Source: a virus. From it: a stretch of DNA of 42,463 nt. Numbering within the stretch: the stretch's first letter is position 1; each line of letters starts with the position of its first letter. The notes below the pieces were generated by a model. It saw only the letters and a program-made list of their open reading frames with translations, had not been told where the DNA came from and made no database searches. Positions 1,669 to 37,292 of this stretch are shown here, piece by piece. Position numbers and translations under genes: made by a program. The DNA is taken from positions 1 through 42,463 of the IMG/VR virus record IMGVR_UViG_3300042507_008413; one strand, written 5' to 3'.

Positions 1669-3396
1669 TTAACAATTATAAACATCTTGAATTTGATTTG
1701 TTCTTATATAAATTGCAATATCAGAGGTTCCACCTGTACCCCCTTGATTCAAACATTTATACCAACCATCGGTTACTCCAGATACGGCATTAGTTAAATC
1801 TATATCAGTATAAATAGGAATAATAGTAGAAGCCGGAGGAATTGCATTAACCATAGCTGCCCCAGTATTCCAATAAATTTGAGTATCATTAGGACTTCCA
1901 GCATTGGTGCATGCATCAAAACCATCAGTTCCTGTATAAGTCCCTACATATTGTATATAATCAGCTTCTGCAGTATTATTAATAGTAAGAGAACAATCAT
2001 CAAGAGCATCTACATTCCCAGCACTACTTAATTGATACCAATAAGTATCACCTACACCTATTAAATATAAGTCACCTCCATTGTATGCGTTAACACCACC
2101 TGTATCAGTAAATAAATCATCATTTAATACCGGAGAAGCATAAGTACCATTTCCTGTTCCTATATTATAATAAAGATCAGTTGTACCTGCTAAACTATAG
2201 TATACACAAGCATCTTCCACAGTGTTTATATGTAAAGAAACATATTCAGGTGGTTGAGATAAAGGATCGTAGAATGTATAATTATCATAATCTGGAACTG
2301 GAGGTGCAGGAGAACCTGTACAAAAACTGCTAGTAGGAACTCGAGTAAGATAAGTAGCACCATTTACTGCTATTAAATCTTTAGCAGTATATGAATTAGT
2401 TAAACCATCTCTTCCATTATCCGAAAATGGATTTGAACTAAATCTATAATATTGAGCCCACGATCCTGTAGTTAAATTTGAAGCTTCTCTGGGGTCATGG
2501 GGGCAGCCTCTATTGTATATAGCATCTGGGATGGCAGAAGCAGTAAGTCGAGTATTAGGCCAATAGCAAAGACTATCAAATGGTCCACCCCAAGGTGTAC
2601 CTCCAACGTTATTAATAGCTTGACCTACTAAAAACTGTTCAGTACCATCATAAGTAAAAGTAGCACTAGTTCCTAAGTTATTATTTGTGGTTTGAGTAAG
2701 TTCTTGCCCATTCCACCAAAGTCTAAAATTACCAGCAGTTGCACTAACTCCTAATCCATCATATACTAAATGAAGATTAACCCAACCTGGGACTCGAGTC
2801 AATCCCCAACCATCAGATCCGGTAGTAATTCCTGTAATAGTACTATTACCACTATTGGTCAAATTCCATCTTCTATCTACACGAGATGTACCAAAAGCTG
2901 TTCCTATTAATCTGGCTATAAGTTGATTAGATTTAGTTCCATTTGAAAGAGTACCTTCATAAAATAAAGAAAAATATGCAGCTCCAAAATTTCCTATTCT
3001 CCCTGAAGATAAAAGATATGGTTGAAAAGATGTTGCTGGAAGCACATCAATTGCTTCTTGTCTTATCCAAAAGTTTAAACTAAAAGGAGTAGAATAATTA
3101 GGATTTAATCCTGAACCTGATAAATTTACTGAGCTTGAGAAAAAATCATTAACTCCGTCTAAATACCCTGTTCTATGGTTATATCCTCTAAACTGAGAAG
3201 CAGAAATTAAAGTAGAAGCAGCATATTGTCCTTGAAAATAAAATGCAGATTCACTATTACTAGCGGTAAACCATAATTGAGCATTTAGACCGCTATTAGA
3301 AGCATTGTATGCTCTATTAAGTTCTAAATTTATCTGAGAAAATGGTAAGGGTAATCTTCCACTATAACTTATACTACTACTTAGGGGTAATGCCAT
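1669..3396 (-). CDS. Tail fibre / adhesin-like structural protein
   Basis: 575 residues. The N-terminus (SSISYSGRLPLPFSQINLEL) resembles the start of phage tail-fibre and structural proteins. Residues about 60-330 are Ser/Thr/Asn/Gly-rich with a predicted beta-sandwich resembling concanavalin A-like (LamG) lectins: SLNFWIR, WVNLHLVYDG and FLVGQA strands. The C-terminal ~180 residues hold two diverged copies of a domain starting at a DAC motif, with a Y-W/Y-N-T/I-G strand and ending near C. Such repeats are common in surface proteins of Bacteroidota phages. Receptor or glycan binding is inferred. An inverted repeat ACTCTAG/CTAGAGT and an ATATTTAT element lie just upstream of the ATG. Confidence 0.75.
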   Translation of the reverse strand: MALPLSSSISYSGRLPLPFSQINLELNRAYNASNSGLNAQLWFTASNSESAFYFQGQYAASTLISASQFRGYNHRTGYLDGVNDFFSSSVNLSGSGLNPNYSTPFSLNFWIRQEAIDVLPATSFQPYLLSSGRIGNFGAAYFSLFYEGTLSNGTKSNQLIARLIGTAFGTSRVDRRWNLTNSGNSTITGITTGSDGWGLTRVPGWVNLHLVYDGLGVSATAGNFRLWWNGQELTQTTNNNLGTSATFTYDGTEQFLVGQAINNVGGTPWGGPFDSLCYWPNTRLTASAIPDAIYNRGCPHDPREASNLTTGSWAQYYRFSSNPFSDNGRDGLTNSYTAKDLIAVNGATYLTRVPTSSFCTGSPAPPVPDYDNYTFYDPLSQPPEYVSLHINTVEDACVYYSLAGTTDLYYNIGTGNGTYASPVLNDDLFTDTGGVNAYNGGDLYLIGVGDTYWYQLSSAGNVDALDDCSLTINNTAEADYIQYVGTYTGTDGFDACTNAGSPNDTQIYWNTGAAMVNAIPPASTIIPIYTDIDLTNAVSGVTDGWYKCLNQGGTGGTSDIAIYIRTNQIQDVYNC

Positions 3397-3440
3397 AGAA
3401 ACTCTAGTTTTATTATAAATATCCTAGAGTCCTAGTTTTT

Positions 3441-3923: not shown

Positions 3924-5231
3924 TTAGAAACCGTATTGATCTATAATATTGAATTTAATATTATTATTACGTGAAACGTTTGATATCCTATATTCTCTCC
4001 ATTGAGGCATTCCTTCCTCTAAGTCAGAACTTGTAATACCATAAGCTGAAGGTGAAAGAGAATCTAAAAATCCTTTTAACGCTGGAGAATCAGTTACAAA
4101 AGATAATTGATCCAAACCTAAATTATAATTAGAAAATTCTATTTGCCTTGGAGAAGACTGGAAATATTCGTCTTGGCTTTCTACTTCATAATGGAATATA
4201 ACCATTTCTCCATAAGTTTCATGGCCTGTAAAATAATCAATTTCTAAAATTGGTGGGGGGGCTTGAACTTTAATTTCTTTTAGAGCTTTTTCAATTTCAT
4301 TTAAACCATTCATTAGGGTCTTGTCTTCAACAGTAAAGTAATTTCTAATATTATTAACAATAAAGTGAACCCCTTTAATGTCTATGGTTTTTTTATATTT
4401 TATTCTGTTCTTTTTAAAGAAATTTTCTAATTCTTTTATAATTTTATATAAATCATTCTCTTCTTCATCATCGGCAAGCCAAATATCTTCAAAATCTATT
4501 TGTATATACCCATTTTCAGCATCAGGAACATAATTCCCAATAAATTTTAAATTTTCTCTTTCAGGATTAAAAGTAAAAAAGAACGGAGATTCTTCATAAC
4601 GACTATCAGTTATAACTAAAGTAGAATAAGGAGATACTACTTTAATTTCAGATAAAACATCATCAAAGATACTAAAATCAGCAGGTATTTTTTGAGCTAC
4701 CTTTTTTATAGCATTTTTAAAATCTTCTACTCCTTTATTAGCATATGCTTTAGCTTTTTCTTGAAGATTATCTTTTTGAATTTTCTTTATCAGTTCTATT
4801 GCTTGTTTTAATATAGAATCATAATCTTCTTTTGGGATTGTAATATCACTAATAATACTTTTAAGAAGAGGAGCATTTATAGTTTCATCCTTAAATTTAT
4901 CTAAATATCTACTATACATGAACCTCTTTTCCTGTAAAAACTTTCGTTTTAAGAATTCATTTTTTGCTTTATAATCAAAATTTCCTTCCTCACCTTTTCT
5001 ATAATACTCAGTAAATTCCATATCAGATTCAAGAAGTTCTCCGTCAGGGCCAAAGTTTACAACTTTAATAACTACTTTATATCTTTTAGGAGTTTCTTTT
5101 ACGTTAATGATATACATTAGGTAATATGTATCTATACCACTCGCCCCCAAATTTCTAACATCACCTTCCATAAAAGGTGGTCTTTCAGGAGCTGTTACTT
5201 TAATCTCATCTAATAATTTTGAAAGCTTCAT
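3924..5231 (-). CDS. Multi-module protein with capsid-targeting-like N-terminus (3 modules)
   Basis: 435 residues. It starts MKLSKLLDE-IKVTAP, and the E-I-K-V junction recurs twice inside (LSE-IKV at 193-198, LKE-IKV at 317-322), splitting the protein into three parts. All three sites fit [I/L]-x-E, the consensus of the T4 prohead protease gp21. The N-terminal nonapeptide resembles the T4 internal-protein capsid-targeting sequence. The first part has strands (Y-x-V-V-I-K-V) and a Lys-rich helical stretch around 135-185. The module type also occurs in the 8.4-13.9 kb cluster. Suggested role: internal head protein released by cleavage. Function is otherwise unknown. Confidence 0.65.
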   Translation of the reverse strand: MKLSKLLDEIKVTAPERPPFMEGDVRNLGASGIDTYYLMYIINVKETPKRYKVVIKVVNFGPDGELLESDMEFTEYYRKGEEGNFDYKAKNEFLKRKFLQEKRFMYSRYLDKFKDETINAPLLKSIISDITIPKEDYDSILKQAIELIKKIQKDNLQEKAKAYANKGVEDFKNAIKKVAQKIPADFSIFDDVLSEIKVVSPYSTLVITDSRYEESPFFFTFNPERENLKFIGNYVPDAENGYIQIDFEDIWLADDEEENDLYKIIKELENFFKKNRIKYKKTIDIKGVHFIVNNIRNYFTVEDKTLMNGLNEIEKALKEIKVQAPPPILEIDYFTGHETYGEMVIFHYEVESQDEYFQSSPRQIEFSNYNLGLDQLSFVTDSPALKGFLDSLSPSAYGITSSDLEEGMPQWREYRISNVSRNNNIKFNIIDQYGF

Positions 5232-5309
5232 ATTAATAAATATAAAAGATCCCTTAAAATCAACCGACTTCTTTATAATAACCCACCCCCATCCTAATAT
5301 CCGTATATA

Positions 5310-8418: not shown

Positions 8419-8970
8419 CTATACGGGGTAAAGGATGATTGAATTTATATCCGAGCGTATATTAATTTTCCAATTACCCGGCAATCGATTAAGATTTTTT
8501 TCTATATATTTAGTATATAATTTGCCTCGTTTTGAATTAAGATCCGGCTCATCTTCTGAATTATCTCCTTTTGGTCGTATTACAATAAAGATAATTTTTA
8601 CATTACCAAGTTTATTTATTTTTTTAATAAAGTCTATTACACATTCAATAACTGTAGCTATTAAACTATATTGTTCAAATAAATTTGTTGTTTGTTCTTC
8701 CTTTTCGGCATCCTTTACGTCGAACCCAACACCTAAATACGTTTTGTACCAAATGTCACCTGAACTTTTAAATTGTTGTAAAGAACCCCTTATAAAAACT
8801 TGATAAGTAGTTTTAGGGCTATTAATTGTATAAGTAAATTCATATTGATTACTTTCTGGATATGGGCCCATTTCTGATTTAATAGTTGCCTCTACATCAC
8901 CATCTGGTGTCCACGGAAATGGTTTAGCTGATGCATCACCAATCTCACTTAATATGTCTGTTAGTTTCAT
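8419..8970 (-). CDS. Single-module protein with capsid-targeting-like N-terminus
   Basis: 183 residues from ATG at 8970, starting MKLTDILSE-IGDASA. A longer in-frame start at 9000 would add residues that are a relic of the neighbouring repeat, so 8970 is chosen. The nonapeptide is identical to that of the next gene upstream and fits the T4 capsid-targeting pattern with an L-S-E cut site. Behind it are strands (YEFTYTI, TTYQVFIRG), a hydrophobic helix (LIATVIECVIDFIKK), an IIFIVIRPKG strand, and an SKRGKLYTKYI motif. Probably an internal or structural head protein; the fold is not recognised. Confidence 0.6.
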   Translation of the reverse strand: MKLTDILSEIGDASAKPFPWTPDGDVEATIKSEMGPYPESNQYEFTYTINSPKTTYQVFIRGSLQQFKSSGDIWYKTYLGVGFDVKDAEKEEQTTNLFEQYSLIATVIECVIDFIKKINKLGNVKIIFIVIRPKGDNSEDEPDLNSKRGKLYTKYIEKNLNRLPGNWKINIRSDINSIILYPV

Positions 8971-8989
8971 TTTTTTAAATTGCGTATTG

Positions 8990-9028
8990 TGTCTTGCCAC
9001 ATTGGGTCGTTGATGTCGTGATTGTTTT
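8990..9028. repeat. 39-bp direct repeat (copy 2 at 9755-9793)
   Basis: This non-coding stretch matches 9755-9793 at 37 of 39 positions by eye. The other copy codes for the N-N-H-D-I-N-D-P-M-W-Q-D segment near the end of the 1014-residue protein. Here it lies just upstream of a gene with the same N-terminal peptide, so it is a scar of junction duplication. Confidence 0.9.
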
Positions 9029-9033
9029 AGTAA

Positions 9034-9732
9034 TTACCATTTAAGATTATTCAGCCCACGCTGAACTTCAGATGGAGATACTAACTCATACGCTTGTGCA
9101 TTAGTCCACTCCCAAAATTTATTATACTTTACAGTAGCTATTAGAATTGCATCTTCTTCTCCTTCTTTCTTAGAGTAGAATTTATTAGGAAGTAGTTTAA
9201 AGTATAAATCATAATAAACAATATTATCTTCACCTCCATGAGGATGTCCCTGATATGGGGGGTGGACAATGTGTCCTAAATATTTTAATTGTGATGGATC
9301 CTCAAAGTAACCAGATTTATCTACTAATTCACCCATGTATTCACTATCTAATGGGAATGGGAGTTCTGATTGACCTGAGGTTACTTTAATTTCTCGTAGT
9401 AAGTTATTAGGTATATCATCTTCATCTATATTAAACCAATTGTAGAACTCATACCCATCTTCCCTTCCATAATTGTAACTGTAAATTACTTTAAATGGGT
9501 AACCCTTATTATCTCTAAAATATGTTGAAATTAAGTGAACATCTTTACCTGGGGTAGGGTGTCCTCTAAATGGCATTTTTTCAAATCCAATATAATGTTT
9601 ATTAATATCAAACTGGCCTATATTGCCTTTTAATACATCTTGAGAAATAAAATCCCAAACTGCTTCAATGTTTAGAGGGTAAGCATCGCCTCGTACTACT
9701 TTAATCTCACTTAATATATCTGTTAGTTTCAT
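9034..9732 (-). CDS. Two-module protein with capsid-targeting-like N-terminus
   Basis: 232 residues from ATG at 9732, which overlaps the stop of the 1014-residue gene as ATGA. The longer start at 9765 would overlap further and is rejected. It begins MKLTDILSE-IKVVRG, and a second junction LRE-IKV occurs at residues 112-117. Both halves share a helix, then a Y-I/L-G segment, a GHP motif (PFRGHPTPG, YQGHPHGG), then Y-F strands, so they are tandem copies. Proposed to be cut by the prohead protease after each E. No known enzyme motif. Confidence 0.65.
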   Translation of the reverse strand: MKLTDILSEIKVVRGDAYPLNIEAVWDFISQDVLKGNIGQFDINKHYIGFEKMPFRGHPTPGKDVHLISTYFRDNKGYPFKVIYSYNYGREDGYEFYNWFNIDEDDIPNNLLREIKVTSGQSELPFPLDSEYMGELVDKSGYFEDPSQLKYLGHIVHPPYQGHPHGGEDNIVYYDLYFKLLPNKFYSKKEGEEDAILIATVKYNKFWEWTNAQAYELVSPSEVQRGLNNLKW

Positions 9733-12700
9733 TTTGTAAGTTGAGTTTTTATAATGTCTTGCCACATTGGGTCATTAATGTCGTGATTGTTTTCACCCCA
9801 ATATGAGTAGTCACCCGTATCACTATCGAAGCTAATTTGGATGACTTTTAACCAAGGGTTTGTGGTGGGGAGTGATACCCTAAAATAATAGGTAATAGTT
9901 TGTGTTGAATCCACAAATAAACCATCGTATATAGAATATCCTAAAAACTCATCGGGTATGTAATTAAGGAATACTTTCTCGGAGTATAATTCCCAAACTT
10001 CTTCAGGACTAGGTATACTAATTGCTGGTTTTACCTTAATCTCGTTTATTTTATGTGGAGGAAACCTCTCTTTGAAATCATTAATTGGCAAAGGCCAAGA
10101 GCTATCATACACATATTGATCTGAACCTGTAGGATCTTCTCTAAAGAAGATCATTCTAATTGTTTCTGGGTCTGGGGTTTGGAAAAAATATCTTATATAT
10201 TGTTTTGGATCATATTCATCTTTTGTATAGTCTACAGAGTCTTGATAGCCTATAAGTTTGTAGTCTTTAATCTCATCTTCCCTCATAGGCTTACGAAGTA
10301 ATTCTTGTCTCAATACCTCATCAGGGTTAACCTTAAATTTAGTCGGAGGTTTTACCTTAATCTCGTTTATTTTATATTCACTATAATCCCTATTGAAATC
10401 ATCAGTTAGCAAACGCCAAGAGCTATCATACACATATTGATCTGAACCCATAGGATATTCTTTAAAGATGATTAGTTTAACTATTTCTGGGTCGGGAGTT
10501 TGGAAATAATATCTTATATAATGTCTTGGATCATTAGTATAATATTGGGCATAGGCACTTTCTGTATCGTCTTGATAACCTATGAGTTTATAGTCTTTAA
10601 TCTCATCTTCCATCATAGGCTTACGAAGTAATTCCTGCCTTAACACCTCATCAGGATCAACTTTAAATCTAGTCGGAGGTTTTACCTTAATTTCGTTTAA
10701 TTCATCTGATTGTGGTTTTAACCAAATTATTTCCTTATCGCCCCTATATGGGCTATCCATGTTCCACTTAACATCTACATAATTAGAAGGATCTTGCTCT
10801 ATATCTCCTAAATCGGTAGTCTCGTAAATGAAGGTAAATATTACATCGAAATGAGATTCACGATAGGTTTCAGCATAAATCTCAGTAGTTTGTTCCTTAG
10901 AGTCTATTTTAAATGCAATTATAGGCTCATTAGGTATTTTAACAAAATCATCTTCATCATAGTATGGGTATCTTGGGTCGTTGTTTTCTAGGAACTCATT
11001 GAAATTGTCAACTGCATTTTGTAATACATCTTTCATTATGGTTTGAAGTGCATCGTAATTGGAAGCTGGTTTAACCTTTATTTCATCAATTTTGATTATA
11101 TCTTTACTATTTTCAAATTCGGATGGGTATATTGAACCCATATTTACAATTTTATAATTACCTGTTTTAGGGTCTTGAGATAAAACTACCTCAAATATAC
11201 GGAGAGTATTATACCAAAGCATCTTGAAATAATAATGTAAATAATCTAGATCATCTTTAGTATATTCTTTGTAACCTATGAATTTGATTGCATCTGCTTC
11301 CTCCTTACTAGTAATATAGAATCGATCAAGATAGAATTGTAAAACCTTATCGGGATCAAGTTTAGGTTGGAACGCCGGTTTAACCTTAATTTCATTCACC
11401 TCAGTTACCTTATTGAATTGATTAGGATCAGTAGCATAGTAATAAAAATACTCATCTGAAACCTGCTTCTCCAAGTCTGGGGATTTTCCTTTTCTAAGAA
11501 ATATTATTACTGTTTCACCTGTGAATCTATATTTAAAATGGTAAGCTATAAAATCTCCTTTAAAACCCCCTATCCAAAGATTGTTAAAATGTTCTGTATA
11601 ATTAACCAGTTTATAGTTTTCAGGGTTGAAAAGTTGAGGTCTTTTCTTTAATCTCCATTCCTTACTACCGTCAGTGTTAGATGCCAAATGATCTTTTAAA
11701 TCATTTATATAATACTGTAATACTTCATCTGGGTCAATTGGTGGAATAAGAGGTGCTGATATCTTTATTTCATTTAATTTAGTTATATCAGTCCTTTCAT
11801 TAAAAGCATCTAAACTTATCTTATCATCTGAATCAAATTGGTAAATACCAGAGCCTTCAGGATATTCCATTAAGACGATCCTTAGAATTGAATCTTCAAA
11901 ACCTGGTATCTCGGGAGAAGTTACAGCAAAGAAATAAATTAGATTATTAAAAATATCTGGGCGTTTTTGTGCTAGATTTGTCTTATATCCTATTAGCTTT
12001 AAATTGGAGCTATCTTTAATTCGTTCAGAATACCAGGCTGAATCATCCTTAAAATATATGTCTAATACCTCATCAGGTGGAACTAAGTCAAATGCTGGTT
12101 TAACCTTAATCTCATCAATTCTTATTGTACCTTCATCAGAATCAAATTGATTCCTAGGAATTGTAGTGAGTTTTATAAATTCGTATGGGGTTGATTCACG
12201 GTATTTACGATAAGTTAATCTCTCAATTCCATCTGGGCGTTGAGAATTAGATACATAGTAAATAGCCAGAGGGTATTCTTCAGGTCTTTCTCTTTCTTCA
12301 TAACCTACAATTTTTAATTCAACAGGTTCATTCGGATATGTTCTGAATAATGATGGGTCCAGGAGATGCTTTAATGTTTTGAGTTGTTCTATCACTTCAT
12401 CGGGATCAACTTTGAATGGTGTTGCAGGTTTGACCTTAATTTCGTTAATTTTAGTTATATCTTTCCTGTTTTCAAAGTCATATGAGGTTATGAAGTCTTC
12501 GGCGTAGTATTCATACACACCTGTTGCAGGATCTTGCTTTAAAATTATTTTAACTATTTGATTTTCATTTCCAAAATTGAAAAAATAAAGCAAATACTTT
12601 TCATCATCCCTATCATAATCTTTATAACCTATAAGTTTAAATCCTGGTGTATTTTCACGAGGATTCCAATGAACCATTTGGTCAAGAAACATTTGTAAAA

Positions 12701-12773
12701 CCTTATCTGGGTCAACTTTGAATGGTGTTGCAGGTTCAATCTTAATTTCTTTTAATATATCTGTTAGTTTCAT
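9729..12773 (-). CDS. Nine-module putative capsid-targeted polyprotein
   Basis: 1014 residues from ATG at 12773. It starts MKLTDILKE-IKIEPA. Nine homologous modules of about 102-130 residues follow, each introduced by [I/L/V]-[N/D/K]-E-I-K-[V/I]. The junction Glu residues fall at about 9, 111, 221, 335, 461, 564, 694, 804 and 911. A typical module has a P-x-x-F-K-V-D-P-D-E-V-L helix start, a Y-K-L-I-G-Y strand, a Y-Y-F strand, an I-I-L strand and a D-P-x-T-G-x-Y hairpin. Modules 7 and 8 are nearly identical; 4 and 6 are most diverged. Eight of nine junctions obey [I/L]-x-E, the gp21 rule of T4. No signal peptide, membrane segment or catalytic motif is seen. Proposed: precursor of many small internal head proteins. 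An uncleaved repeat protein is the alternative. Confidence 0.7.
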   Translation of the reverse strand: MKLTDILKEIKIEPATPFKVDPDKVLQMFLDQMVHWNPRENTPGFKLIGYKDYDRDDEKYLLYFFNFGNENQIVKIILKQDPATGVYEYYAEDFITSYDFENRKDITKINEIKVKPATPFKVDPDEVIEQLKTLKHLLDPSLFRTYPNEPVELKIVGYEERERPEEYPLAIYYVSNSQRPDGIERLTYRKYRESTPYEFIKLTTIPRNQFDSDEGTIRIDEIKVKPAFDLVPPDEVLDIYFKDDSAWYSERIKDSSNLKLIGYKTNLAQKRPDIFNNLIYFFAVTSPEIPGFEDSILRIVLMEYPEGSGIYQFDSDDKISLDAFNERTDITKLNEIKISAPLIPPIDPDEVLQYYINDLKDHLASNTDGSKEWRLKKRPQLFNPENYKLVNYTEHFNNLWIGGFKGDFIAYHFKYRFTGETVIIFLRKGKSPDLEKQVSDEYFYYYATDPNQFNKVTEVNEIKVKPAFQPKLDPDKVLQFYLDRFYITSKEEADAIKFIGYKEYTKDDLDYLHYYFKMLWYNTLRIFEVVLSQDPKTGNYKIVNMGSIYPSEFENSKDIIKIDEIKVKPASNYDALQTIMKDVLQNAVDNFNEFLENNDPRYPYYDEDDFVKIPNEPIIAFKIDSKEQTTEIYAETYRESHFDVIFTFIYETTDLGDIEQDPSNYVDVKWNMDSPYRGDKEIIWLKPQSDELNEIKVKPPTRFKVDPDEVLRQELLRKPMMEDEIKDYKLIGYQDDTESAYAQYYTNDPRHYIRYYFQTPDPEIVKLIIFKEYPMGSDQYVYDSSWRLLTDDFNRDYSEYKINEIKVKPPTKFKVNPDEVLRQELLRKPMREDEIKDYKLIGYQDSVDYTKDEYDPKQYIRYFFQTPDPETIRMIFFREDPTGSDQYVYDSSWPLPINDFKERFPPHKINEIKVKPAISIPSPEEVWELYSEKVFLNYIPDEFLGYSIYDGLFVDSTQTITYYFRVSLPTTNPWLKVIQISFDSDTGDYSYWGENNHDINDPMWQDIIKTQLTK
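9755..9793. repeat. 39-bp direct repeat (copy 1)
   Basis: The coding copy, near the 3' end of the 1014-residue gene, of the repeat found again at 8990-9028. Together with the shared N-terminal peptide sequence next to each copy, it marks a gene-junction duplication. Confidence 0.9.
10054..10704 (-). repeat. Two recent tandem modules (7 and 8)
   Basis: The DNA of modules 7 (about 10378-10704) and 8 (about 10054-10377) is nearly the same for long stretches, for example around 10251-10375 against 10577-10702. Both contain the VLRQELLRKPM segment followed by EDEIKDYKLIGYQD, and QYVYDSSW. The other modules are far more diverged, so this is the latest duplication in the array. Confidence 0.8.
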
Positions 12774-12779
12774 CCTTAT

Positions 12780-13118
12780 TCAATACTCAAGTTCAATTGC
12801 TGCTACCCTAATACCATCTAATGTACGGACTATATAACCTAACCCATAGTCACTAACAAAATTTTCATCGTTTTCTGCATCCTCTAAAAACCTAAAAATA
12901 ATACTCAGTTTTAATTCGTCATCCACTTCAGGATCATCACCATCATCAATAATAGCATTCATTTTTACTTCTTGTGGATTAGTCCCAATTAACTCTATAC
13001 TTTCTATTGTTTTTATATAGAATTTTTTTTTAATATATTCTAAATTACCTTCTATAAGATCTAATAACATGCTAGGTGCTTGAATCCTAATCTCATTTAA
13101 TAGGTCAATCAATTTCAT
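12780..13118 (-). CDS. Single-module protein with capsid-targeting-like N-terminus
   Basis: 112 residues from ATG at 13118. It begins MKLIDLLNE-IRIQAP, again an L-x-E junction followed by I-R/K-V/I. It then shows an acidic body with an IESIELIG strand and DDGDDPEVDDELKL loop before LSIIFRFLED. The following 1014-residue gene starts 6 bases after its stop, so they share an operon. Upstream is TTAATATTTATAGGT immediately before the ATG. Same proposed class as the neighbours. Confidence 0.65.
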   Translation of the reverse strand: MKLIDLLNEIRIQAPSMLLDLIEGNLEYIKKKFYIKTIESIELIGTNPQEVKMNAIIDDGDDPEVDDELKLSIIFRFLEDAENDENFVSDYGLGYIVRTLDGIRVAAIELEY

Positions 13119-13139
13119 ACCTATAAATATTAAGAAAAG

Positions 13140-13304
13140 TTACATCTTAAATAATCTGATGTTCCTTACTATCACCCATTGATTTATATTTCGAGCAAAT
13201 CGAGTTGCTTCTCTTAAATCTGGAAATTCACGAGTCAATTCTTCCCAATAACCAGGGCGACTACTGCTATCCATGTTGTAACGATTGTAAACTATTTTGT
13301 ACAT
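13140..13304 (-). CDS. Small hypothetical protein (54 aa)
   Basis: ATG at 13304, TAA ending at 13140. The product is basic (MYKIVYNRYN, REATRFARNIN) with an EELTREFPDL helix, with no family recognised. It resembles small proteins that describe a query by row or residue (W-V-I-V-R-N) in phages but nothing decisive is seen. Confidence 0.5.
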   Translation of the reverse strand: MYKIVYNRYNMDSSSRPGYWEELTREFPDLREATRFARNINQWVIVRNIRLFKM

Positions 13305-13308
13305 AACC

Positions 13309-13446
13309 TTAATTTTGTTTTTTAATTATTATTTTACCAAAACACATTCCGAAGAATAAAAATGCTAAAATGTTTTGTGTATAAAATCCTATGCACCAAA
13401 AAGTAAAACCAAGCAACGCCCAACCTAAGTTAGTTAGTTGTATCAT
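13309..13446 (-). CDS. Small membrane protein (45 aa)
   Basis: ATG at 13446, stop at 13309, four bases before the next gene. Two hydrophobic segments (about 7-20 and 25-37) and a Lys-rich tail suggest a two-span inner-membrane peptide. Family unknown. Confidence 0.5.
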   Translation of the reverse strand: MIQLTNLGWALLGFTFWCIGFYTQNILAFLFFGMCFGKIIIKKQN

Positions 13447-13475
13447 AAAGATTGTATATTTGTAGGGATTTAGGC

Positions 13476-13862
13476 TTAAGGTAGATTCTCTATTTGATTT
13501 ATAAACTCAACTAAATACTTATAGTCATAAGTTGATTCAATTTCTAGAATATATTTATTTCTACCTAAAGGGCGAAGAAATTGGTCTGGGTTTTGATTAG
13601 GTAAATCCTCTAAATATTCTACTGTAAATACCTTAGCAGGAATTGTACCATACTCTGGGATTGTGAATGAATGGATGCTTCGAGGTATGTTAGCTAGTTT
13701 TAATCTAACTAACCCATTAGAAGTTGTGAATGAATCTCCTATATTTGAATATGCTAAATAATCGTCTAATGAAGGTAACATTGCTGTTACTTTAATTTCA
13801 TTAAGTAAATTAATTCTTCTATTTTTATAAATAAACTCTGTTATATCAAAATTACCTTTCAT
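13476..13862 (-). CDS. Single-module protein, variant capsid-targeting-like N-terminus
   Basis: 128 residues from ATG at 13862. The LLNE-IKVTA junction sits at about residues 19-26, after an extra N-terminal stretch that itself contains I-T-E. The rest is beta-rich (LVRLKLANI, AKVFTVEYL, YILEIESTYDY) and short. TTTATATTTATCACC precedes the ATG. It belongs with the EIKV family by its junction, but the longer leader sets it apart. Confidence 0.6.
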   Translation of the reverse strand: MKGNFDITEFIYKNRRINLLNEIKVTAMLPSLDDYLAYSNIGDSFTTSNGLVRLKLANIPRSIHSFTIPEYGTIPAKVFTVEYLEDLPNQNPDQFLRPLGRNKYILEIESTYDYKYLVEFINQIENLP

Positions 13863-13891
13863 GGTGATAAATATAAAGAGATTATCTAGAC

Positions 13892-24017: not shown

Positions 24018-24821
24018 TTATAAATATTCTATCTCTAACCCTGGAATCCTATCATATTGATGAACTATACAATATAATTCTCCAGAGTAGGTAAAAACTT
24101 GATTATTCTTTATTACTGGGGGGTTGGATAATAATTTGGAGGTGTATTTAGGTGCAACTTTAGGGTCTAAGGTTGTTCCTAATTGAGCACACCAACTTTC
24201 TTCTAGGGAATTAAAACAAGTTACTTTTTCCCAAGGTTTAGTATTAAGAATTAAATTAAATGCGGCTTGATCGGGTTGGGGGTCATGTTGTGTTCCGACT
24301 AAGCTAAGGTGGAATACACTAAAACAAAGATCCCTAACATAAGAAGATACACCACCAAAAGTTCCGGCATTGAAAATTTCATTGTTTTTATGATTTTCGT
24401 ATAGGTGGGGGTAACAAGTAGCTAAGTTATTATTCCCCCAATCTTCATCTACATACTTAAGACCCTCACTTCCTACTATTATCTTATCAAATTGCATCTT
24501 ATAAACATCCTTTATATGTTTTATAGGATCCCTTTGAAATATTACATCTTTAACATCAGTAACTACAACATACTCATAATCAGAGTGTTGGCTCAAAAAA
24601 TTATAAATGTCTAAAAATCTTTGAACTACTATATGTAATCCCGTAGATTGAGTAACAACTACACTAACATTATTTTCTTTAAGATATTGGAGGGTTTCTT
24701 CAGGAACATCATATACTATAGTTAAAATTTCTCCTGAAAAATGTTTTTTAGCAGATTGAACCCAATGGTGGATTTTATCAGGGGTGTATCGAGTTATGTT
24801 CCCTATCAGTAAGTTTTTCAT
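24018..24821 (-). CDS. Glycosyltransferase (GT-A like, GT8-type DxD)
   Basis: 267 residues. VVVTDVKDVIFQRDP (about 85-100) fits the metal-binding D-x-x-D stretch of GT-A enzymes such as GT8. NAGTFGGVSSYVRDL and DPQPDQAAFNLIL are the usual acceptor-side motifs. The N-terminal MKNLLIGNITRYTPDKI is a nucleotide-sugar-fold strand and helix. It is the last enzyme of the glycan operon and overlaps the upstream gene by 44 nt. Donor and acceptor unknown. Confidence 0.72.
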   Translation of the reverse strand: MKNLLIGNITRYTPDKIHHWVQSAKKHFSGEILTIVYDVPEETLQYLKENNVSVVVTQSTGLHIVVQRFLDIYNFLSQHSDYEYVVVTDVKDVIFQRDPIKHIKDVYKMQFDKIIVGSEGLKYVDEDWGNNNLATCYPHLYENHKNNEIFNAGTFGGVSSYVRDLCFSVFHLSLVGTQHDPQPDQAAFNLILNTKPWEKVTCFNSLEESWCAQLGTTLDPKVAPKYTSKLLSNPPVIKNNQVFTYSGELYCIVHQYDRIPGLEIEYL

Positions 24822-25677
24822 TGAACTTAATTAATTCAGGTTGGAAATTAGAATGGGATTGTTGAGTAAATTCTTCTTTTCTATCTATAAATTTAATTAA
24901 AGACTTTAAATACTCCAACCTAAACTTATTATTTTCAATAACAAGTTCACCTTCAATAACATATTGTTGAGGGTGAATATTATGATGTTTCATTATTCCA
25001 CAGGCATACATGATAAAAGTATCATCTAATCCATAGGGACCTAATGAATCTGGGATGTCAATAAATCTACCTAATTGGGTTGCAATTACAGTACCCCACC
25101 CAGCAAATTTAAACTCAGATATAGGTTTAAGATTAATACTAGAATTAAAAAAGGTACTTTTATAAGGATCTCTGTTAAAATAATTTTCATGAGTTGCTTC
25201 CTCATTGAAAAAACTTTCATTACTAACTACATCCCAAGTAGTGTCCCACATTCTGGTGAGTTGGGGAGTGATAATACATAAAGGATTAGTTACAAGTTCA
25301 ATACTATCAAATATTCTTCTTAATAAAGTATCATTAAAAATAACATCAGTATCCAGATACATAACATAATCAGCATCTGTTGTTCTAAAAGTATGTCGTC
25401 TTAAATCATTACACCCTAAAAACTTACCTTCAGTATCTATCCTTAAAACACACTCGGCCCAATCTTCATTTATTTTAATTAACTCGTGATAGGCTGAGCT
25501 GAAAAAATTTATATCTAGGACTGAAAAGGACCAATCTACTAGATTAGTGTTTAATAAAACCTCAATTCTTACTCTATGATTCTCATTTAGATATTGACTG
25601 GACCTTTTTAACTGGATTAATGTTTGTTCTAAGGCATTAAGTTCGTAAGGTAAAGTGTGAATTATTATATGTAACAT
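24778..25677 (-). CDS. Glycosyltransferase-like protein (GT-A)
   Basis: 299 residues. LDTDVIFND (about 113-121) is a D-x-D metal-binding motif, and LGPYGLDDTF is an acidic acceptor-side motif. An N-terminal fold with VRIEVLLNTNLVDWS suits a Rossmann-like nucleotide-sugar domain. C-terminus is rich in Lys/Glu helices. It overlaps both neighbours. Donor unknown. Confidence 0.65.
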   Translation of the reverse strand: MLHIIIHTLPYELNALEQTLIQLKRSSQYLNENHRVRIEVLLNTNLVDWSFSVLDINFFSSAYHELIKINEDWAECVLRIDTEGKFLGCNDLRRHTFRTTDADYVMYLDTDVIFNDTLLRRIFDSIELVTNPLCIITPQLTRMWDTTWDVVSNESFFNEEATHENYFNRDPYKSTFFNSSINLKPISEFKFAGWGTVIATQLGRFIDIPDSLGPYGLDDTFIMYACGIMKHHNIHPQQYVIEGELVIENNKFRLEYLKSLIKFIDRKEEFTQQSHSNFQPELIKFNEKLTDREHNSIHP

Positions 25678-26441
25678 TATAGTTCAATTAAAGTATGGTC
25701 TTTCAAACCCGTAATAATATCAAATTGCTCCCAGCCTGTAGGGACTTCCCAGTGTTCACAAAGAGTAGGATTTTGAATTACTTCATATCCCCCAAGCATC
25801 ATAACATATTGTAAACTGAAATCAATCCAACCTATAATTTTGTTGATTTTTACTAAATCATCATAATTTTGGTAGAAATGATCTTTACAATCTTCCCAAG
25901 CTTTTATAAATTGTTCTCTATTTACTATAGTCCCCCCACCTGATGCATACCCAGGACAATTATCAACTCCACCATGTTGTTTAGAATAATCAAAAAATTC
26001 TTGATTAATATAATTAGGTCTCATTCTACCTGTTGGGCTAGGAGCTGTAGGGTGAATCGCTATGCTAAAATCATATTGTAAAATAGTAATAGGTTTTAAA
26101 ACAAAATCATCTTCTTCTAAAAGAAGCATATAATAAGAATCTGTTTTTTTGCAGGCCTCATAAAAACCTCTAAACCATTCAAAAGTTGCTTCTTTATCCC
26201 AACACTCTCTACCTACCTGGACATTGCCAAAGTTACCACAATAACCTAGTTGAAAAAGATTAATTGATGTTTTAGCCCCAATTTCAAGACCACGTTGTTG
26301 GTAATTGATTAAATCACCCTCGTAATCTACATTTATAAATAAATCAGCATCCGGGTAGTGTTTTTGGAGGCTTTGGAGAGATTTTATTCCTGAATCTACA
26401 TTTCGATAAGCCCAAAGGTAACCACTGATAATTTTAGTCAT
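25677..26441 (-). CDS. Glycosyltransferase-like protein
   Basis: 254 residues. LLLEEDDFVLKPI (about 105-117) is an acidic motif like the D-x-D of GT-A proteins, preceded by an aromatic FEWFRGFYEACKK helix. GYASGGGTIVNREQF fits a donor-side glycine loop. The start MTKIISGYLWAYRNVDSG is a typical strand. It shares only the A of its ATG with the upstream stop. Donor unknown. Confidence 0.6.
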   Translation of the reverse strand: MTKIISGYLWAYRNVDSGIKSLQSLQKHYPDADLFINVDYEGDLINYQQRGLEIGAKTSINLFQLGYCGNFGNVQVGRECWDKEATFEWFRGFYEACKKTDSYYMLLLEEDDFVLKPITILQYDFSIAIHPTAPSPTGRMRPNYINQEFFDYSKQHGGVDNCPGYASGGGTIVNREQFIKAWEDCKDHFYQNYDDLVKINKIIGWIDFSLQYVMMLGGYEVIQNPTLCEHWEVPTGWEQFDIITGLKDHTLIEL

Positions 26442-27099
26442 GGCGAGTTAAAATATAAAGATCATTAGTTATAGCATTCTTAAATTCATCATCAACCCAT
26501 TGGACATTTTCAGCTCCAACTTGATTAACCATAGGAAGATACCAATTATGCATAGCTACATTTATACCTTCAGGTGGATTAGTTTCCATTTCTTCAATTG
26601 ATGATATAACATTATCTAACATAGAGTAAGGAAACACTACAAAAGTATCATTTACAATAGGTAAATTAGTATACTCAGGTTCTCTCCAAAGAAAATTGAA
26701 TTTAGTAAAATCGAAGTTATATTCTTTAAAGGGATTTTTAAAAAATTTTATATCAAACCTAGTTGAAATAATTAAATCTAAGTCTTGATTTTGAAGAAAA
26801 TTTAAACTATTTAAATAAATAGAAGAAATAGCTTTATATGATCCTACTTTATCACCTCCACCTAAATTATTGTAAGATGGAGGGGCAATAACAAAGTTTT
26901 GAGGTTTATAATCTTGTTCTATCTCTTTTAATTTATCATTATAGTAGGTACAAATATAGAATGATACTTCATGTCCTTCTTCTTTTAATGGGTTAACTAT
27001 CCATGTGTTAAATTCATTTATAGCATCTTTATAGTTTCTATAACGTCCATAAACACCATCATTAAAAGATACACCTACTAAATTAATTCCTATCTTCAC
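26434..27099 (-). CDS. Glycosyltransferase-cluster protein (GTG start)
   Basis: 221 residues starting at GTG 27099; no ATG exists in the frame near it. KIGINLVGVSFND, LIISTRFDIKF and FVVFPYSMLDN give a nucleotide-sugar-like alternation of strands; the R-F-D triad may be the metal motif. Overlaps the acetyltransferase gene by 17 nt. It resembles uncharacterised glycan-cluster proteins. Confidence 0.55.
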   Translation of the reverse strand: MKIGINLVGVSFNDGVYGRYRNYKDAINEFNTWIVNPLKEEGHEVSFYICTYYNDKLKEIEQDYKPQNFVIAPPSYNNLGGGDKVGSYKAISSIYLNSLNFLQNQDLDLIISTRFDIKFFKNPFKEYNFDFTKFNFLWREPEYTNLPIVNDTFVVFPYSMLDNVISSIEEMETNPPEGINVAMHNWYLPMVNQVGAENVQWVDDEFKNAITNDLYILTRHD

Positions 27100-27511
27100 C
27101 CCATTCCATTTTTATATAACTTCTTCCTCTAACAAATCCTCGTTCTCCGGTTTCCTTAAAACCTAGCTGTTTATATAAATCTTTAGCAAAATTGTCACTA
27201 AAGACCCATAAACTAGCATAAGTTTTATCTTTTAAATATTTTTGGTAGGCAGCTTTAGCATATCCTTGTCTTCTATGTAGAGGGTGGATATCACACCCAA
27301 CTTCATCCCCACTTGTTCTTAAATAACCAACTGCTTCTAGGTGTTGATTAATTATAATGTACCAAGGAGATTTTAAATTATCAAACCAATTTTCACATTG
27401 TTCTAAAGTAAACACAGAATTATTTTCCAGATTACGTCTGGTAGAATGATCATTTCTTACTTCTAGTAAAAAAGGTAAATCTTTTTTAGTTAAAGGTCTT
27501 AATGTTACCAT
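27083..27511 (-). CDS. GNAT-family N-acetyltransferase
   Basis: 142 residues. VTLRPLTKKDLPFLLEVRND is the GNAT N-terminal strand-helix, and LHRRQGYAKAAYQKYL contains the R/Q-x-x-G-x-A/G acetyl-CoA loop; SLWVFSDNFAKDLYKQLGF is the classic C-terminal half. The neighbouring aminotransferase suggests N-acetylation of an amino sugar made by the pair. Confidence 0.82.
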   Translation of the reverse strand: MVTLRPLTKKDLPFLLEVRNDHSTRRNLENNSVFTLEQCENWFDNLKSPWYIIINQHLEAVGYLRTSGDEVGCDIHPLHRRQGYAKAAYQKYLKDKTYASLWVFSDNFAKDLYKQLGFKETGERGFVRGRSYIKMEWGEDRN

Positions 27512-28698
27512 CCTTGTTTAATACAATTTACGATATATTCTCTTTCTTCCTCAGTAACCCACCAACCTACAGGAATTGAAACTACTTTACTAATAGTTTT
27601 ATCTAATGTAGGAAGTGAAGACTTATACTCTCTAACTGCAGTGTGTTTATCATTTCTTTCATGTACCTGGGAGGCTACTATGTTGCATTTTTTCATGTGT
27701 TTGTAGAAACCATCTCGATCTTCTACTAACATGGAATAAATCCAAAATGCAGATTCAAACCCCTCTTCACGTTTTAATAAAGTTACTCCAGGTGTATTAG
27801 ATAAATGTTTATCATAATAAGCAGCATTTTCTTGATGCTTTTTTACTAATTCATCAGCATGTTTTAAATTTTCAATTCCTACTGTAGCGCAAACATCATT
27901 CATATGAAATTTAAATCCCCATTCTTCGATATCGGCTTCACATCTAAAATCTTTACGATTAGAATCTCTATCAATTCCATACCAACGAATTAATTTGGCT
28001 CTATTATATAATTCTTGGTGGGGCAAAGTTAAAATACCACCATCAATTGCTGTTATATGTTTAATGGCTTGTAAAGAATACATTACCATATTCCCATGGT
28101 TGCCTAAGTATTTACCTTTATATTTTGAACCAAATGAGTGAGCTCCATCTTCAATTACAGCAGGTTTAAAACCATACATTTGTTGGGCTTTCATTTGAAT
28201 CTTTTTAATTCTATCTAAATCATTTGGATAACCCCCCCAGTGAACTAAAATAATAGCTTTAGTTGTTGGGGTGATTTTACGTTCTAAATCATCTAAATCC
28301 ATATTAAGTGTAGTAGGATCGACATCTACCCACTTAATTTTTAAACCATTAGCTAAAATAGGAAAATTTGAAGCAGTACAAGTAAGAGCAGTAGCTAAAA
28401 CCTCATCACCAGGTTGTAGACCAGGCCAATAGTTTTCGGTAGCTATTACCCCATGATAAACCTGAGTGGTTTTTTTAGGGTTTTTAAGTAAATGAAGAGC
28501 CAAATGTAGTCCTGAAGTTCCAGAGTTTAGAGTAACAAGTTTATCAACTTCAAAGAATGATTGGAGTTGTTTTTCAAATTCATCTACTTTAGGTCCTTGT
28601 CCTATATAACCACTATTTAATACTTTAGCTACTTCATCAGCAGCTGTAGGAGCCATGTGGACTTTAAAAAGTTGTATTGGATTTTTAGGTGTTTTCAT
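27505..28698 (-). CDS. DegT/DnrJ/EryC1/StrS aminotransferase
   Basis: 397 residues, normal for the family. LNSGTSGLHLALHL (PLP-phosphate loop), a VIEDGAHSFGSKYKG stretch (D stacks on PLP), and SLQAIKHITAIDGG with the Schiff-base Lys at about 213. It aminates a keto-sugar nucleotide, for example the product of the nearby 4,6-dehydratase. The following GNAT would acetylate the amine. Overlaps the GNAT start by 7 nt. Confidence 0.88.
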   Translation of the reverse strand: MKTPKNPIQLFKVHMAPTAADEVAKVLNSGYIGQGPKVDEFEKQLQSFFEVDKLVTLNSGTSGLHLALHLLKNPKKTTQVYHGVIATENYWPGLQPGDEVLATALTCTASNFPILANGLKIKWVDVDPTTLNMDLDDLERKITPTTKAIILVHWGGYPNDLDRIKKIQMKAQQMYGFKPAVIEDGAHSFGSKYKGKYLGNHGNMVMYSLQAIKHITAIDGGILTLPHQELYNRAKLIRWYGIDRDSNRKDFRCEADIEEWGFKFHMNDVCATVGIENLKHADELVKKHQENAAYYDKHLSNTPGVTLLKREEGFESAFWIYSMLVEDRDGFYKHMKKCNIVASQVHERNDKHTAVREYKSSLPTLDKTISKVVSIPVGWWVTEEEREYIVNCIKQGW

Positions 28699-28706
28699 AT
28701 TTTTTA

Positions 28707-29411
28707 TTAGGATAATACTTTTTCAGAGATGATATTTCCTTGTGGATCACCCCACCAAAGCCAATTATCTCTAAGTAAAGTAAATTTTAAATCAGGATTT
28801 TTAATAACATTAGATAATAGTCCTGCTTCTTCTACTATTTTAGTCCAGCTTTCTTCAGCCGTATTTAAAATTCTTTTTTTTCTAGATTGTTTTATTAGCT
28901 TATAAAAAACTTCATAATATAAAGTTTCAGCATTTTTTTGATTAGTTATGCAAAGGTTATCATCTAAAAAATTCTCATTACCCGCATGGTGTAAAAAATT
29001 ACCATCAATTAAATCTAAATTTAAAGGATATCCTATTCCTAAATCATAACGACTTCTTATAACTAAATCATATTGGATTTGGGTATCTTTCATTAATTGA
29101 AAAACATTTTGCCAACTGTAAATCATAGGAAATTGTCTAAAACAACTCATCACATCATATTGAGGGAGAGGTCTCGAGGTATCATTATGAGGTAATTTAA
29201 TTCCTTGTTTATATGAAGTAAATTTAAACGGTTCTTGGATATGAATTGACTTAGCATTAGGGTAAAATTGTGAAACTTTTTCCCATTCTTCATCTTTCCA
29301 ACTGTGAAGGTAAACATCAGTATCGTAGTTATCTATAATATGTTTCCAAGTTATATTATAGCCTTCTTCTACTTTTCTAGCTAATCCTGAGAGTAATAAA
29401 GCTACTTTCAT
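28707..29411 (-). CDS. Glycan-cluster protein, paralogue of 39661-40464
   Basis: 234 residues. Starts MKVALLLSGLARKVEEGYN and has DLVIRSRYD at about 116-124, closely paralleling MKTAILLSG... and DLVIRLRTD in the gene at 39661-40464. The R-x-R-x-D motif and the nucleotide-sugar-like N-terminal fold suggest a glycosyltransferase of unclassified type. Such proteins recur in the glycan clusters of marine and freshwater myophages. Confidence 0.6.
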   Translation of the reverse strand: MKVALLLSGLARKVEEGYNITWKHIIDNYDTDVYLHSWKDEEWEKVSQFYPNAKSIHIQEPFKFTSYKQGIKLPHNDTSRPLPQYDVMSCFRQFPMIYSWQNVFQLMKDTQIQYDLVIRSRYDLGIGYPLNLDLIDGNFLHHAGNENFLDDNLCITNQKNAETLYYEVFYKLIKQSRKKRILNTAEESWTKIVEEAGLLSNVIKNPDLKFTLLRDNWLWWGDPQGNIISEKVLS

Positions 29412-30151
29412 TTTCCGTATTTAATTAAATCAACATGTTTAAATAATCCTTCACCATGAGCTACTTTAAAATTTTGTTTAGCCCACCAACGAGAAATATT
29501 ACCTTCAAGAGCAATACCATCCCCAGCAAAAGGTTTTACGCATTCTAAATAAAAATCTTTAGAGTATAAACAGGGATTATTAGTCCAGTTAGCCCATCTT
29601 GAGGTTGTAGTAAAATATTCTCCAGTTTTTTGGATTTTATCTGGGAATTTCTCATAGGGGTCACACCAATGAACTGAATCTAATAAGTGGGGAGAAGTGC
29701 ACTCAATTTCAGAGTCGTAGTAATCTAATTCTCTACCTTGATATTGAAATGAAAAGTGAGGGTACCCTGGGTCTTGTCTATGTCTGTATCTGATGCAATT
29801 AAAATCAGAGTTAGTAATTAGGTTTAATCCTTGGGAGAGTCTAGTAAAGGTTATCTCAGGTGATTCAATAAGTTGCCAATCATGTTCTAAAATCATAACA
29901 TGATCATACTTAGCTTTTTCAGTTAATTCTATAAAACCTTTACCAATACCTATATTGTTAGGTAAACCTAAATAGTTAATATTAAAATGATCTGCTATTT
30001 CTTTATCCCCACTATTAAATTCCTGAAAAAGGATAGTAATATCATCAGTTATATCTAATAAACCATTAATATAATAACTGTATAGGGTATTAACTAAGGT
30101 TTGTCCTGATTTCCAAGATAAGATTCCTATGCTGATAGGTAGTTTTTCCAT
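29408..30151 (-). CDS. Family 2-like glycosyltransferase
   Basis: 247 residues. ISIGILSWKSGQTLVNTL is a GT2 N-terminal strand-helix; MILEHDWQL (about 90-98) replaces D-x-D as E-H-D; FAGDGIALEGNISRW is the acceptor-side region. Overlaps the following gene as ATGA. Probably transfers one sugar to the glycan made by the operon. Confidence 0.7.
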   Translation of the reverse strand: MEKLPISIGILSWKSGQTLVNTLYSYYINGLLDITDDITILFQEFNSGDKEIADHFNINYLGLPNNIGIGKGFIELTEKAKYDHVMILEHDWQLIESPEITFTRLSQGLNLITNSDFNCIRYRHRQDPGYPHFSFQYQGRELDYYDSEIECTSPHLLDSVHWCDPYEKFPDKIQKTGEYFTTTSRWANWTNNPCLYSKDFYLECVKPFAGDGIALEGNISRWWAKQNFKVAHGEGLFKHVDLIKYGK

Positions 30152-31011
30152 TGTTCTAATATAGTGTTTACTCTTTGTACTTGGGTATGTAAAGATAATA
30201 TTTTTTCTCTACCCCTCAAAGCTATACTATTTAATTCTTCAGGAGAGTTTGTGTAATGATTAATTTTATTAATACACTCTACAATATCATCATAAAAAAC
30301 TATTTCTTCATTTTCAACAAATAATTCATGAAGTTTTTTAGATTCATTTAGGCGATCTGTTAATACCATCTTACCACAAGCCATTGCCTCAAAAATACGT
30401 CTTGTAACTTCACCCCAACGGCTATTTTGAATTACCATTACTCCTGAGCAAAGAAATTTACTATGCTCTTCACCTTGCCAACCACCTTGATTGGCAATTG
30501 CCCCTTCAGAATGTTCAGTTAAAATATCTAATAATTCACTTCCACCTTTACCTCTTGAGGTTACGGCAGCATATCGAATAGGTACATTTTGGGGTTTATG
30601 AATTTGAGTATCAGCAAAATGGGTCCACCAAATAGCATTTATGCCTCGTTTTGTATATTCTAAGTATGAATCGTGGTCTGGTGTGAGGGTAAGGTGGAAA
30701 CGGTTGGCTTTAGGATAATTGCGCTCAAAATTTTGAGGGTCATCTCCTGATTCTTGAATCCAAAATGCTGGGACTAGATCTTTATTTAGGTAAGGAGAAT
30801 CAAATCTACCCCAATCCATAAACATTACTAGATCTGTTTTTGGTTTAGATTCAACCCACTTTTTTAAATCTGTATCATGATAATAAGCTTTAGAATTACT
30901 TCCTATAGAAATAATCTCAGTTTCCCACCCTCTATTTTTAAATTCATTAACTATAGATAAAGGAGTAGACCAAGTTTCACCTTCATAAGCATAAATAAAA
31001 GTTATTTTCAT
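30127..31011 (-). CDS. Glycosyltransferase, GT-B (CgeB / GT1-like)
   Basis: 294 residues. N-terminal strand MKITFIYAYEGETWS, then a C-terminal RRIFEAMACGKMVLTDR segment, the E-x7-E-like nucleotide-sugar motif of CgeB and GT4-like enzymes, followed by EEIVFYDDIVE. Length is short for GT-B, about 300. Soluble. Donor unknown. Confidence 0.75.
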   Translation of the reverse strand: MKITFIYAYEGETWSTPLSIVNEFKNRGWETEIISIGSNSKAYYHDTDLKKWVESKPKTDLVMFMDWGRFDSPYLNKDLVPAFWIQESGDDPQNFERNYPKANRFHLTLTPDHDSYLEYTKRGINAIWWTHFADTQIHKPQNVPIRYAAVTSRGKGGSELLDILTEHSEGAIANQGGWQGEEHSKFLCSGVMVIQNSRWGEVTRRIFEAMACGKMVLTDRLNESKKLHELFVENEEIVFYDDIVECINKINHYTNSPEELNSIALRGREKILSLHTQVQRVNTILEQWKNYLSA

Positions 31012-37281: not shown

Positions 37282-37292
37282 AAATTATTTTA

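What the first reader, a model, noticed from the sequence alone, without database searches (positions are those of the whole stretch)
8419..13862. Putative capsid-targeted polyprotein: nine modules with [I/L]-x-E junctions
A 1014-residue protein is nine homologous modules, each preceded by x-x-E-I-K-[V/I]; eight of nine junctions fit [I/L]-x-E (the ninth is V-N-E). Flanking genes carry one or two modules behind near-identical N-termini (MKLTDILSE, MKLIDLLNE). The T4 prohead protease gp21 cuts after [I/L]-x-E, and T4 internal head proteins carry a similar short N-terminal capsid-targeting peptide that is removed by it. Together this suggests head-packaged peptides released from a precursor during maturation, perhaps ejected into the host. 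I know of no described phage polyprotein of this kind.
Basis: partly seen in the sequence, partly recalled or inferred. Interest (0 to 1): 0.9.

Follow-up and report, generated by a model that had tools for sequence, protein, structure and literature searches.

The report
Precursor of many packaged phage proteins
In uncultured T4-like phages of Bacteroidota-type bacteria, one gene seems to string together up to 17 small protein domains joined by cut sites for the phage's own head-maturation protease, so a single precursor could stock the head with many different proteins to be injected into the host.

Summary
Window 9729-12773(-) encodes 1014 aa in nine modules, each preceded by xxE-I-K-[V/I]; eight junctions are [I/L]xE and one is VNE. 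Two corrections: module 6 is not detectably related to the others (module 9 only marginally), and a second, three-module precursor lies outside the given range (3924-5231).

A near-complete relative (G050, 128 kb) carries a 1795-aa, 17-module version plus a 500-aa one. No module homology was detected between the two phages; the junction [LIV]xE-IK[VI]xxP is what they share. G050 encodes the gp21 prohead protease and gp23.

Evidence for head targeting and cutting: near-identical leaders sit on unrelated proteins beside terminase and portal in a close relative; gp23 carries [V/L]xE at T4's known cut position; the cut motif is depleted inside modules of the two long precursors; two unrelated modules are predicted compact with a disordered junction; a candidate late promoter shared with tail genes heads the operons.

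The locus is absent from the nearest long relative, like T4's variable internal-protein genes. Cleavage, packaging and ejection are inferred, not shown. I judge this a new variant of the T4 internal-protein system: polyprotein-borne internal head proteins.

The parts
9729..12773 (-). 1014-aa precursor: leader MKLTDILKE plus nine modules
12747..12773 (-). leader MKLTDILKE (predicted capsid-targeting propeptide)
   Evidence: sequence; near-identical leaders on neighbouring and head-region genes
12441..12746 (-). module 1 (102 aa)
12111..12440 (-). module 2 (110 aa)
11769..12110 (-). module 3 (114 aa)
11391..11768 (-). module 4 (126 aa)
11082..11390 (-). module 5 (103 aa), preceded by the VNE junction
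10692..11081 (-). module 6 (130 aa), not detectably homologous to the others
   Evidence: E 1.3
10362..10691 (-). module 7 (110 aa); AlphaFold pLDDT 80, pTM 0.75, junction disordered
10041..10361 (-). module 8 (107 aa), 67% identical to module 7
9732..10040 (-). module 9 (103 aa), marginal homology
   Evidence: E 0.006
9034..9732 (-). 232-aa two-module precursor, MKLTDILSE|IKV ... LLRE|IKV (true start 9732, ATGA overlap)
8419..8970 (-). 183-aa single protein, MKLTDILSE|IGD (true start 8970); leader DNA duplicated from the 9732 gene, homology ending at the E-I codons
12780..13118 (-). 112-aa single-module protein, MKLIDLLNE|IRI; head of the operon
13476..13862 (-). 128-aa single-module protein, ..INLLNE|IKV
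3924..5231 (-). 435-aa three-module precursor (MKLSKLLDE|IKV, VLSE|IKV, ALKE|IKV), modules not detectably related to each other; outside the finding's range
13123..13130 (-). ATATTTAT candidate late-promoter core before the 112/1014/232-aa operon
13867..13874 (-). ATATTTAT candidate late-promoter core before the 128-aa gene
5236..5243 (-). ATATTTAT candidate late-promoter core before the 435-aa gene
3415..3422 (-). same candidate promoter before a fibre-like gene (1669-3396)

Best explanation
The cluster encodes precursors of internal head proteins of a T4-like phage, probably of Flavobacterium-like bacteria. Steps: (1) The genes are transcribed late with the virion genes (supported by the shared candidate promoter). 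(2) The short N-terminal segment and/or the repeated LNE-IKVxxP element brings the precursor into the prohead core (inferred). (3) The gp21-type prohead protease cuts after [L/I/V]-x-E at every junction, freeing about 80-190-aa domains that each begin IK[VI] (inferred; site and protease present in relatives). (4) The freed domains stay with the packaged DNA and are ejected into the host, where different modules act on different host targets such as restriction or other defences (inferred by analogy with T4 IPI*). Joining many cargo domains with cut sites lets one leader and one gene package a quickly changing set of cargoes.
For: Junctions far above chance and confined to the cluster. A second phage, G050, has the same architecture at the 17-module scale; no homology was detected between its modules and those of the window, while the junction is conserved. 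One junction is attached to many mutually unrelated domains. G050 has gp21 (PF03420, E 3e-25) and gp23; gp21 is found in 11 of 12 late-region contigs of the clade with the H/S/D positions of T4 gp21 kept. gp23 of these phages has [V/L]xE aligned with T4's known LTE|A cut, with variable residues after E. In G065 (same metagenome as a contig whose polymerase is 99% identical to that of the window's near-twin) the leaders MIKLINILHE|IKI, MIKLTDILQE|AKE, MIKLANILSE|AEL and MIKLSDILKE|INI head four different proteins just upstream of terminase and portal, so conservation stops at E; another protein there ends in a window-type module after LQE|IKVKPP (A1 profile E 2e-7). [LI]xE is depleted inside modules of both long precursors (3 vs 11.3, P 0.0015; 14 vs 22.2, P 0.03), with none of six control proteins depleted. 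Two unrelated module families are predicted as compact domains with the junction at pLDDT about 50 or below. The candidate late promoter lies before 21/67 late versus 1/90 other ORFs in G050 (P 3e-8), including the 1795-aa gene, and before the cluster's operons in the window. The locus is missing at the same place in the closest long relative, G068, as expected of variable internal-protein genes. T4 rules: gp21 cuts after L/I-X-E and a 10-residue leader suffices for targeting (PMC9026906); T-even internal proteins share only a conserved targeting sequence, and IPI* is an injected restriction inhibitor (PMC3012670).
Against: No gp21 in the window itself (fragment). G050's precursors start MNE-IKV, with no MKLxDLL leader. 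IKVxxP after the cut is conserved, unlike the variable P1' side of gp23 and of the other leaders, so the motif may have an added or different role. Shorter precursors (435 and 500 aa) show no depletion of [LI]xE. No Pfam, PHROG or fold match gives any module a function. No proteomic evidence.
Confidence: 0.6

Rival explanations
1. LNE-IKVxxP is a docking motif, not a cut site: the protein stays whole as a string of domains inside the head, each motif binding the scaffold, portal or DNA, and is ejected intact, like the multi-domain 'polyvalent' proteins.
For: IKVxxP is conserved beyond the proposed cut and in G050 also without an upstream leader. Multi-domain injected proteins are known in phages (PMC5512222).
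Against: Similar leaders followed by A, I or S show conservation ending at E; [LI]xE avoided inside modules of the long precursors; single-module genes with the same start exist beside them.
Confidence: 0.22
2. A tail, fibre or head-surface repeat protein whose repeats happen to start with a conserved strand.
For: Lies next to a fibre-like gene and shares the candidate late promoter with tail genes; modular length variation is common in such proteins.
Against: Repeats are often unrelated domains; the shared element is predicted outside the fold in two unrelated modules; similar leaders occur on single small proteins beside terminase and portal; no fibre-like family or fold match.
Confidence: 0.08
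3. Not in the virion: a multi-domain protein made in the infected cell (for example a panel of inhibitors), with EIKVxxP as a linker.
For: The window's cluster sits among small hypothetical genes, away from capsid genes.
Against: Candidate late promoter; motif and leader recur in the head operon of G065 and G050.
Confidence: 0.1

Closest known systems
T4 internal proteins IPI/IPII/IPIII with capsid-targeting sequence, cut by gp21 (PMC9026906, PMC3012670)
   Same: About 10-residue N-terminal leader ending [L/I]xE; diverse, variable small proteins sharing little but the leader; gp21-family protease in relatives; accessory locus.
   Different: T4 has one protein per leader. Here up to 9 (window) or 17 (G050) modules follow in one chain with a site at every boundary, and a conserved IKVxxP follows the site. 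No sequence similarity to T4 internal proteins found.
Polyvalent proteins of phages and conjugative elements (Iyer et al. 2017, PMC5512222)
   Same: Many domains in one phage polypeptide, thought to be packaged and injected.
   Different: Those carry recognisable enzymatic domains and often their own metallopeptidase; here there are none, and the cut sites would serve the prohead protease.
phiKZ/SPN3US ejection-protein paralogs cut by a gp21-like protease (PMC5694885, PMC9026906)
   Same: Head-packaged, ejected, paralogous, processed C-terminal to Glu by a gp21 relative.
   Different: Separate genes with long propeptides, motif S/A-x-E; no tandem cargo chain in the passages read.
Flavobacterium phage vB_FspM_immuto (NC_055915)
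   Same: Nearest isolate by gp23 (57.5% identity to G050); gp21 present; leader proteins such as MIKLIDLLTE|SLF.
   Different: No [LIV]xEI[KR][VI] junction anywhere in 50.7k aa of ORFs and no precursor found.

Membership tests
T4-type internal head proteins (CTS + gp21) | N-terminal leader of about 10 aa ending in the protease motif | tested here: met
   MKLTDILKE, MKLTDILSE, MKLIDLLNE, MKLSKLLDE in the window; not met for the two G050 precursors, which start MNE|IKV
T4-type internal head proteins (CTS + gp21) | gp21-family protease in the same phage | tested here: inconclusive
   Window is a fragment without head genes; present in G050 (same cluster) and in 11 of 12 late contigs of the clade
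T4-type internal head proteins (CTS + gp21) | Site matches that protease's other substrates | tested here: met
   gp23 [V/L]xE at the position of T4's cut in 21 distinct gp23s
T4-type internal head proteins (CTS + gp21) | Late expression with virion genes | tested here: inconclusive
   Shared candidate promoter only
T4-type internal head proteins (CTS + gp21) | Found in the head, cleaved, ejected | not testable with these tools
   Needs virion proteomics
T4-type internal head proteins (CTS + gp21) | Sequence homology to IPI/II/III or other described phage families | tested here: not met
   No significant PHROG or Pfam match. Not a defining feature, since internal proteins are hypervariable; it limits the claim to 'works like'
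Polyvalent proteins | Several recognisable effector domains in one chain | tested here: not met
   No significant Pfam domain in any of the precursors

The most novel reading that the evidence does not exclude
A phage polyprotein in the viral sense: a prohead protease that matures capsids also cuts one precursor into 9-17 separate cargo proteins inside the head, a cassette system in which new anti-host modules are added by recombination at the cut site.
Probability: 0.5. Interest if true: 0.88.

Novelty: new variant of a known kind. Interest (0 to 1): 0.76.

Why it matters
If true, T4-like phages outside Enterobacteria pack a changing panel of injected proteins from one gene, the first such phage polyprotein I could find (literature searches). 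It would give a simple sequence signature ([LIV]xE-IK[VI]xxP) for finding injected anti-host proteins in uncultured phages of Bacteroidota, and a natural design for loading many proteins into a T4-type head. It also makes the question of what internal proteins do testable module by module.

Tried and rejected
tblastn of the 1014-, 1795- and 435-aa proteins against 50,697 phage records found no relative (one chance hit at E 0.3). A GTDB scan for leader plus junction was empty. The T4 late promoter TATAAATA is not enriched in the window; upstream sequences instead showed ATATTTATAAYAAAA. Foldseek gave no significant match for either module (best E 0.37 and 0.12 in PDB, 0.066 in BFVD), so weak hits are ignored. 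Most of the 76 contigs found by the leader pattern are chance (for example 18-aa ORFs) and were discarded. 'One inseparable repeat fold' was considered and rejected because modules are unrelated in sequence and the junction is predicted outside both folds. Window versus G001 shows no amino-acid change in xEIK[VI] among 18 differences in the 1014-aa protein, but that is too few to be significant.

Full report
What is there. The window is a 42-kb fragment of a virus record with nearly all genes on the minus strand. At 9729-12773 a 1014-aa protein has nine modules of 102-130 aa, each preceded by xxE-I-K-[V/I]. Shuffled versions of the protein contain 0.13 such motifs on average (observed 9), and [LIV]xEI[KR][VI] is found 16 times in the cluster and never in 10,641 aa of the other ORFs of the window. 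Flanking genes start with near-identical leaders; two of their starts were corrected to internal ATGs. A second precursor of 435 aa with three modules lies at 3924-5231, outside the reported range.

Modules. With junction residues removed, modules 1-5, 7 and 8 are homologous (leave-one-out E 3e-5 to 1e-26), module 9 marginally, module 6 not; the modules of the 435-, 232-, 112- and 128-aa proteins are not detectably related to them. AlphaFold models of module 7 (pLDDT 80, pTM 0.75) and of an unrelated module family from a second phage (pLDDT 82, pTM 0.73) are compact, and in both the junction segment has very low confidence and no secondary structure. Neither matches a known fold.

The phage. 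A 96% identical contig (G001, 59 kb) extends past the window and carries T4-type replication genes (gp43, gp44 and gp45 by inspection), GroEL and queuosine genes. A relative of 128 kb, G050, found with a DNA pattern for nothing but leader plus junction, contains gp21 and gp23 by profile and gp17, gp20 and gp22 by inspection and synteny. Its gp23 is closest among isolates to Flavobacterium phage immuto (57.5%), so the host is probably a Flavobacterium-like bacterium (inference). The terminase of G065, a close relative of the window phage, has at least 600 relatives in IMG/VR, so the wider clade is large.

Conservation of architecture. G050 has a 1795-aa protein with 17 modules of 80-172 aa and a 500-aa one with four, plus a single-module protein between them, in one overlapping operon. 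BLAST and HMM comparison finds no homology between modules of the two phages, while [LIV]xE-IK[VI]xxP is conserved. G050's modules themselves fall into two families plus unrelated singletons. One signal on many unrelated domains is what a processing or targeting signal looks like and what a repeat fold does not.

Link to the head. In G065, terminase and portal are preceded by a run of proteins with leaders MIKLINILHE|IKI, MIKLTDILQE|AKE, MIKLANILSE|AEL, MIKLSDILKE|INI, MKKSQLNKIIRSALQE|IKVKP and MFDLKKYLSNNPLLNE|IKVKAP. A further protein of that contig carries a window-type module after KSVLQE|IKVKPP (A1 profile E 2e-7). In the four MIKLxxIL leaders conservation stops at E and the next residue varies. 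The same stop is seen at DNA level in the window: the leader of the 232-aa gene is duplicated in front of the 183-aa gene and the match ends at the E-I codons, as if leaders are recombined onto new cargo.

Protease and site. gp21 (PF03420) is present in 11 of 12 late contigs examined, with the H, S and D positions of T4 gp21 kept. At the position aligned with T4 gp23's known cut (LTE|A), 21 distinct gp23s of the fetched contigs have [V/L]xE with a variable next residue (the pattern used required a hydrophobic P3, so this shows V is usual, not that alternatives are absent). [LI]xE is depleted inside the modules of the two long precursors (3 against 11.3 expected, P 0.0015; 14 against 22.2, P 0.03), not in the shorter ones, and none of six control proteins is depleted; the scaffold gp22, which in T4 is cut many times, leans the other way (15 against 9.4).

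Timing. Upstream of tail and other virion genes in G050 and immuto lies ATATTTATAAYAAAA. In G050 it precedes 21 of 67 ORFs of the late regions and 1 of 90 others (P 3e-8). It precedes the 1795-aa gene, and its core precedes the 112/1014/232-aa operon, the 128-aa gene, the 435-aa gene and the fibre-like gene of the window. I read it as a candidate late promoter; it has not been tested.

Variability. In G068, a 170-kb relative with flanking genes up to 88% identical, both insertion sites lack the module genes; the other long or late-region contigs fetched with it lack them too, though most are fragments. Presence, absence and complete replacement of modules between relatives resembles the T-even internal-protein loci, whose proteins share only the targeting sequence (PMC3012670).

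Mechanism and its limits. I propose late synthesis, entry into the prohead core, cutting by gp21 at every [LIV]xE junction, and ejection of the separate domains with the DNA, as for T4 internal proteins (PMC9026906). Shown: architecture, motif, protease and site in relatives, leaders on head-operon proteins, candidate shared promoter. Inferred: packaging, cutting, ejection, function. Two facts do not fit easily: G050's precursors begin MNE-IKV without the longer leader, and IKVxxP is conserved after the proposed cut. Either this stretch is read by this protease, or it is itself the targeting or docking element; the second possibility is the main rival.

Known or new. The parts (leader, protease, packaged small proteins) are of the T4 kind; the chaining of many cargo domains with a site at each boundary is not in the papers I could search. 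Polyvalent proteins (PMC5512222) are multi-domain injected proteins but carry recognisable effector domains and are processed differently. I file it as a new variant of a known kind, not as a proven member.

Noticed in passing
G050 (L146-L152), immuto (L171-L174), window 3415-3422, 5236-5243, 13123-13130, 13867-13874: Candidate late promoter ATATTTATAAYAAAA of T4-like Bacteroidota phages, in place of T4's TATAAATA; upstream of sheath, tube, tape measure, hub and fibre genes.
   Followed up: partly
L212:14212-14775 (G065): Leader protein MIKLSDILKE|INIQ.. beside terminase that reads by eye like a small kinase fold (no Pfam hit); possibly a packaged kinase-like protein.
   Followed up: partly
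L212:10007-12214 and G050 117339-121055: Large (735-1238 aa) similar-looking head-region proteins with leader or internal LDE-IRVKAP; the 735-aa one has no Pfam match.
   Followed up: partly
window 8941-9732: DNA upstream of and including the leader of the 232-aa gene is duplicated before the 183-aa gene, with a remnant of the end of the 1014-aa gene at 8979-9029.
   Followed up: yes
G001: L004 17463-20322: T4-type DNA polymerase split into two ORFs around a 71-aa ORF that looks Smr-like.
   Followed up: no
G001: L004 211-993: Phage protein with a C-terminal sequence resembling a Bacteroidota type IX secretion sorting signal (YPNPTTGF..).
   Followed up: no
window 24018-41825: Long run of glycosyltransferase, aminotransferase, epimerase and nucleotidyltransferase genes (probable surface-sugar pathway).
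   Followed up: no
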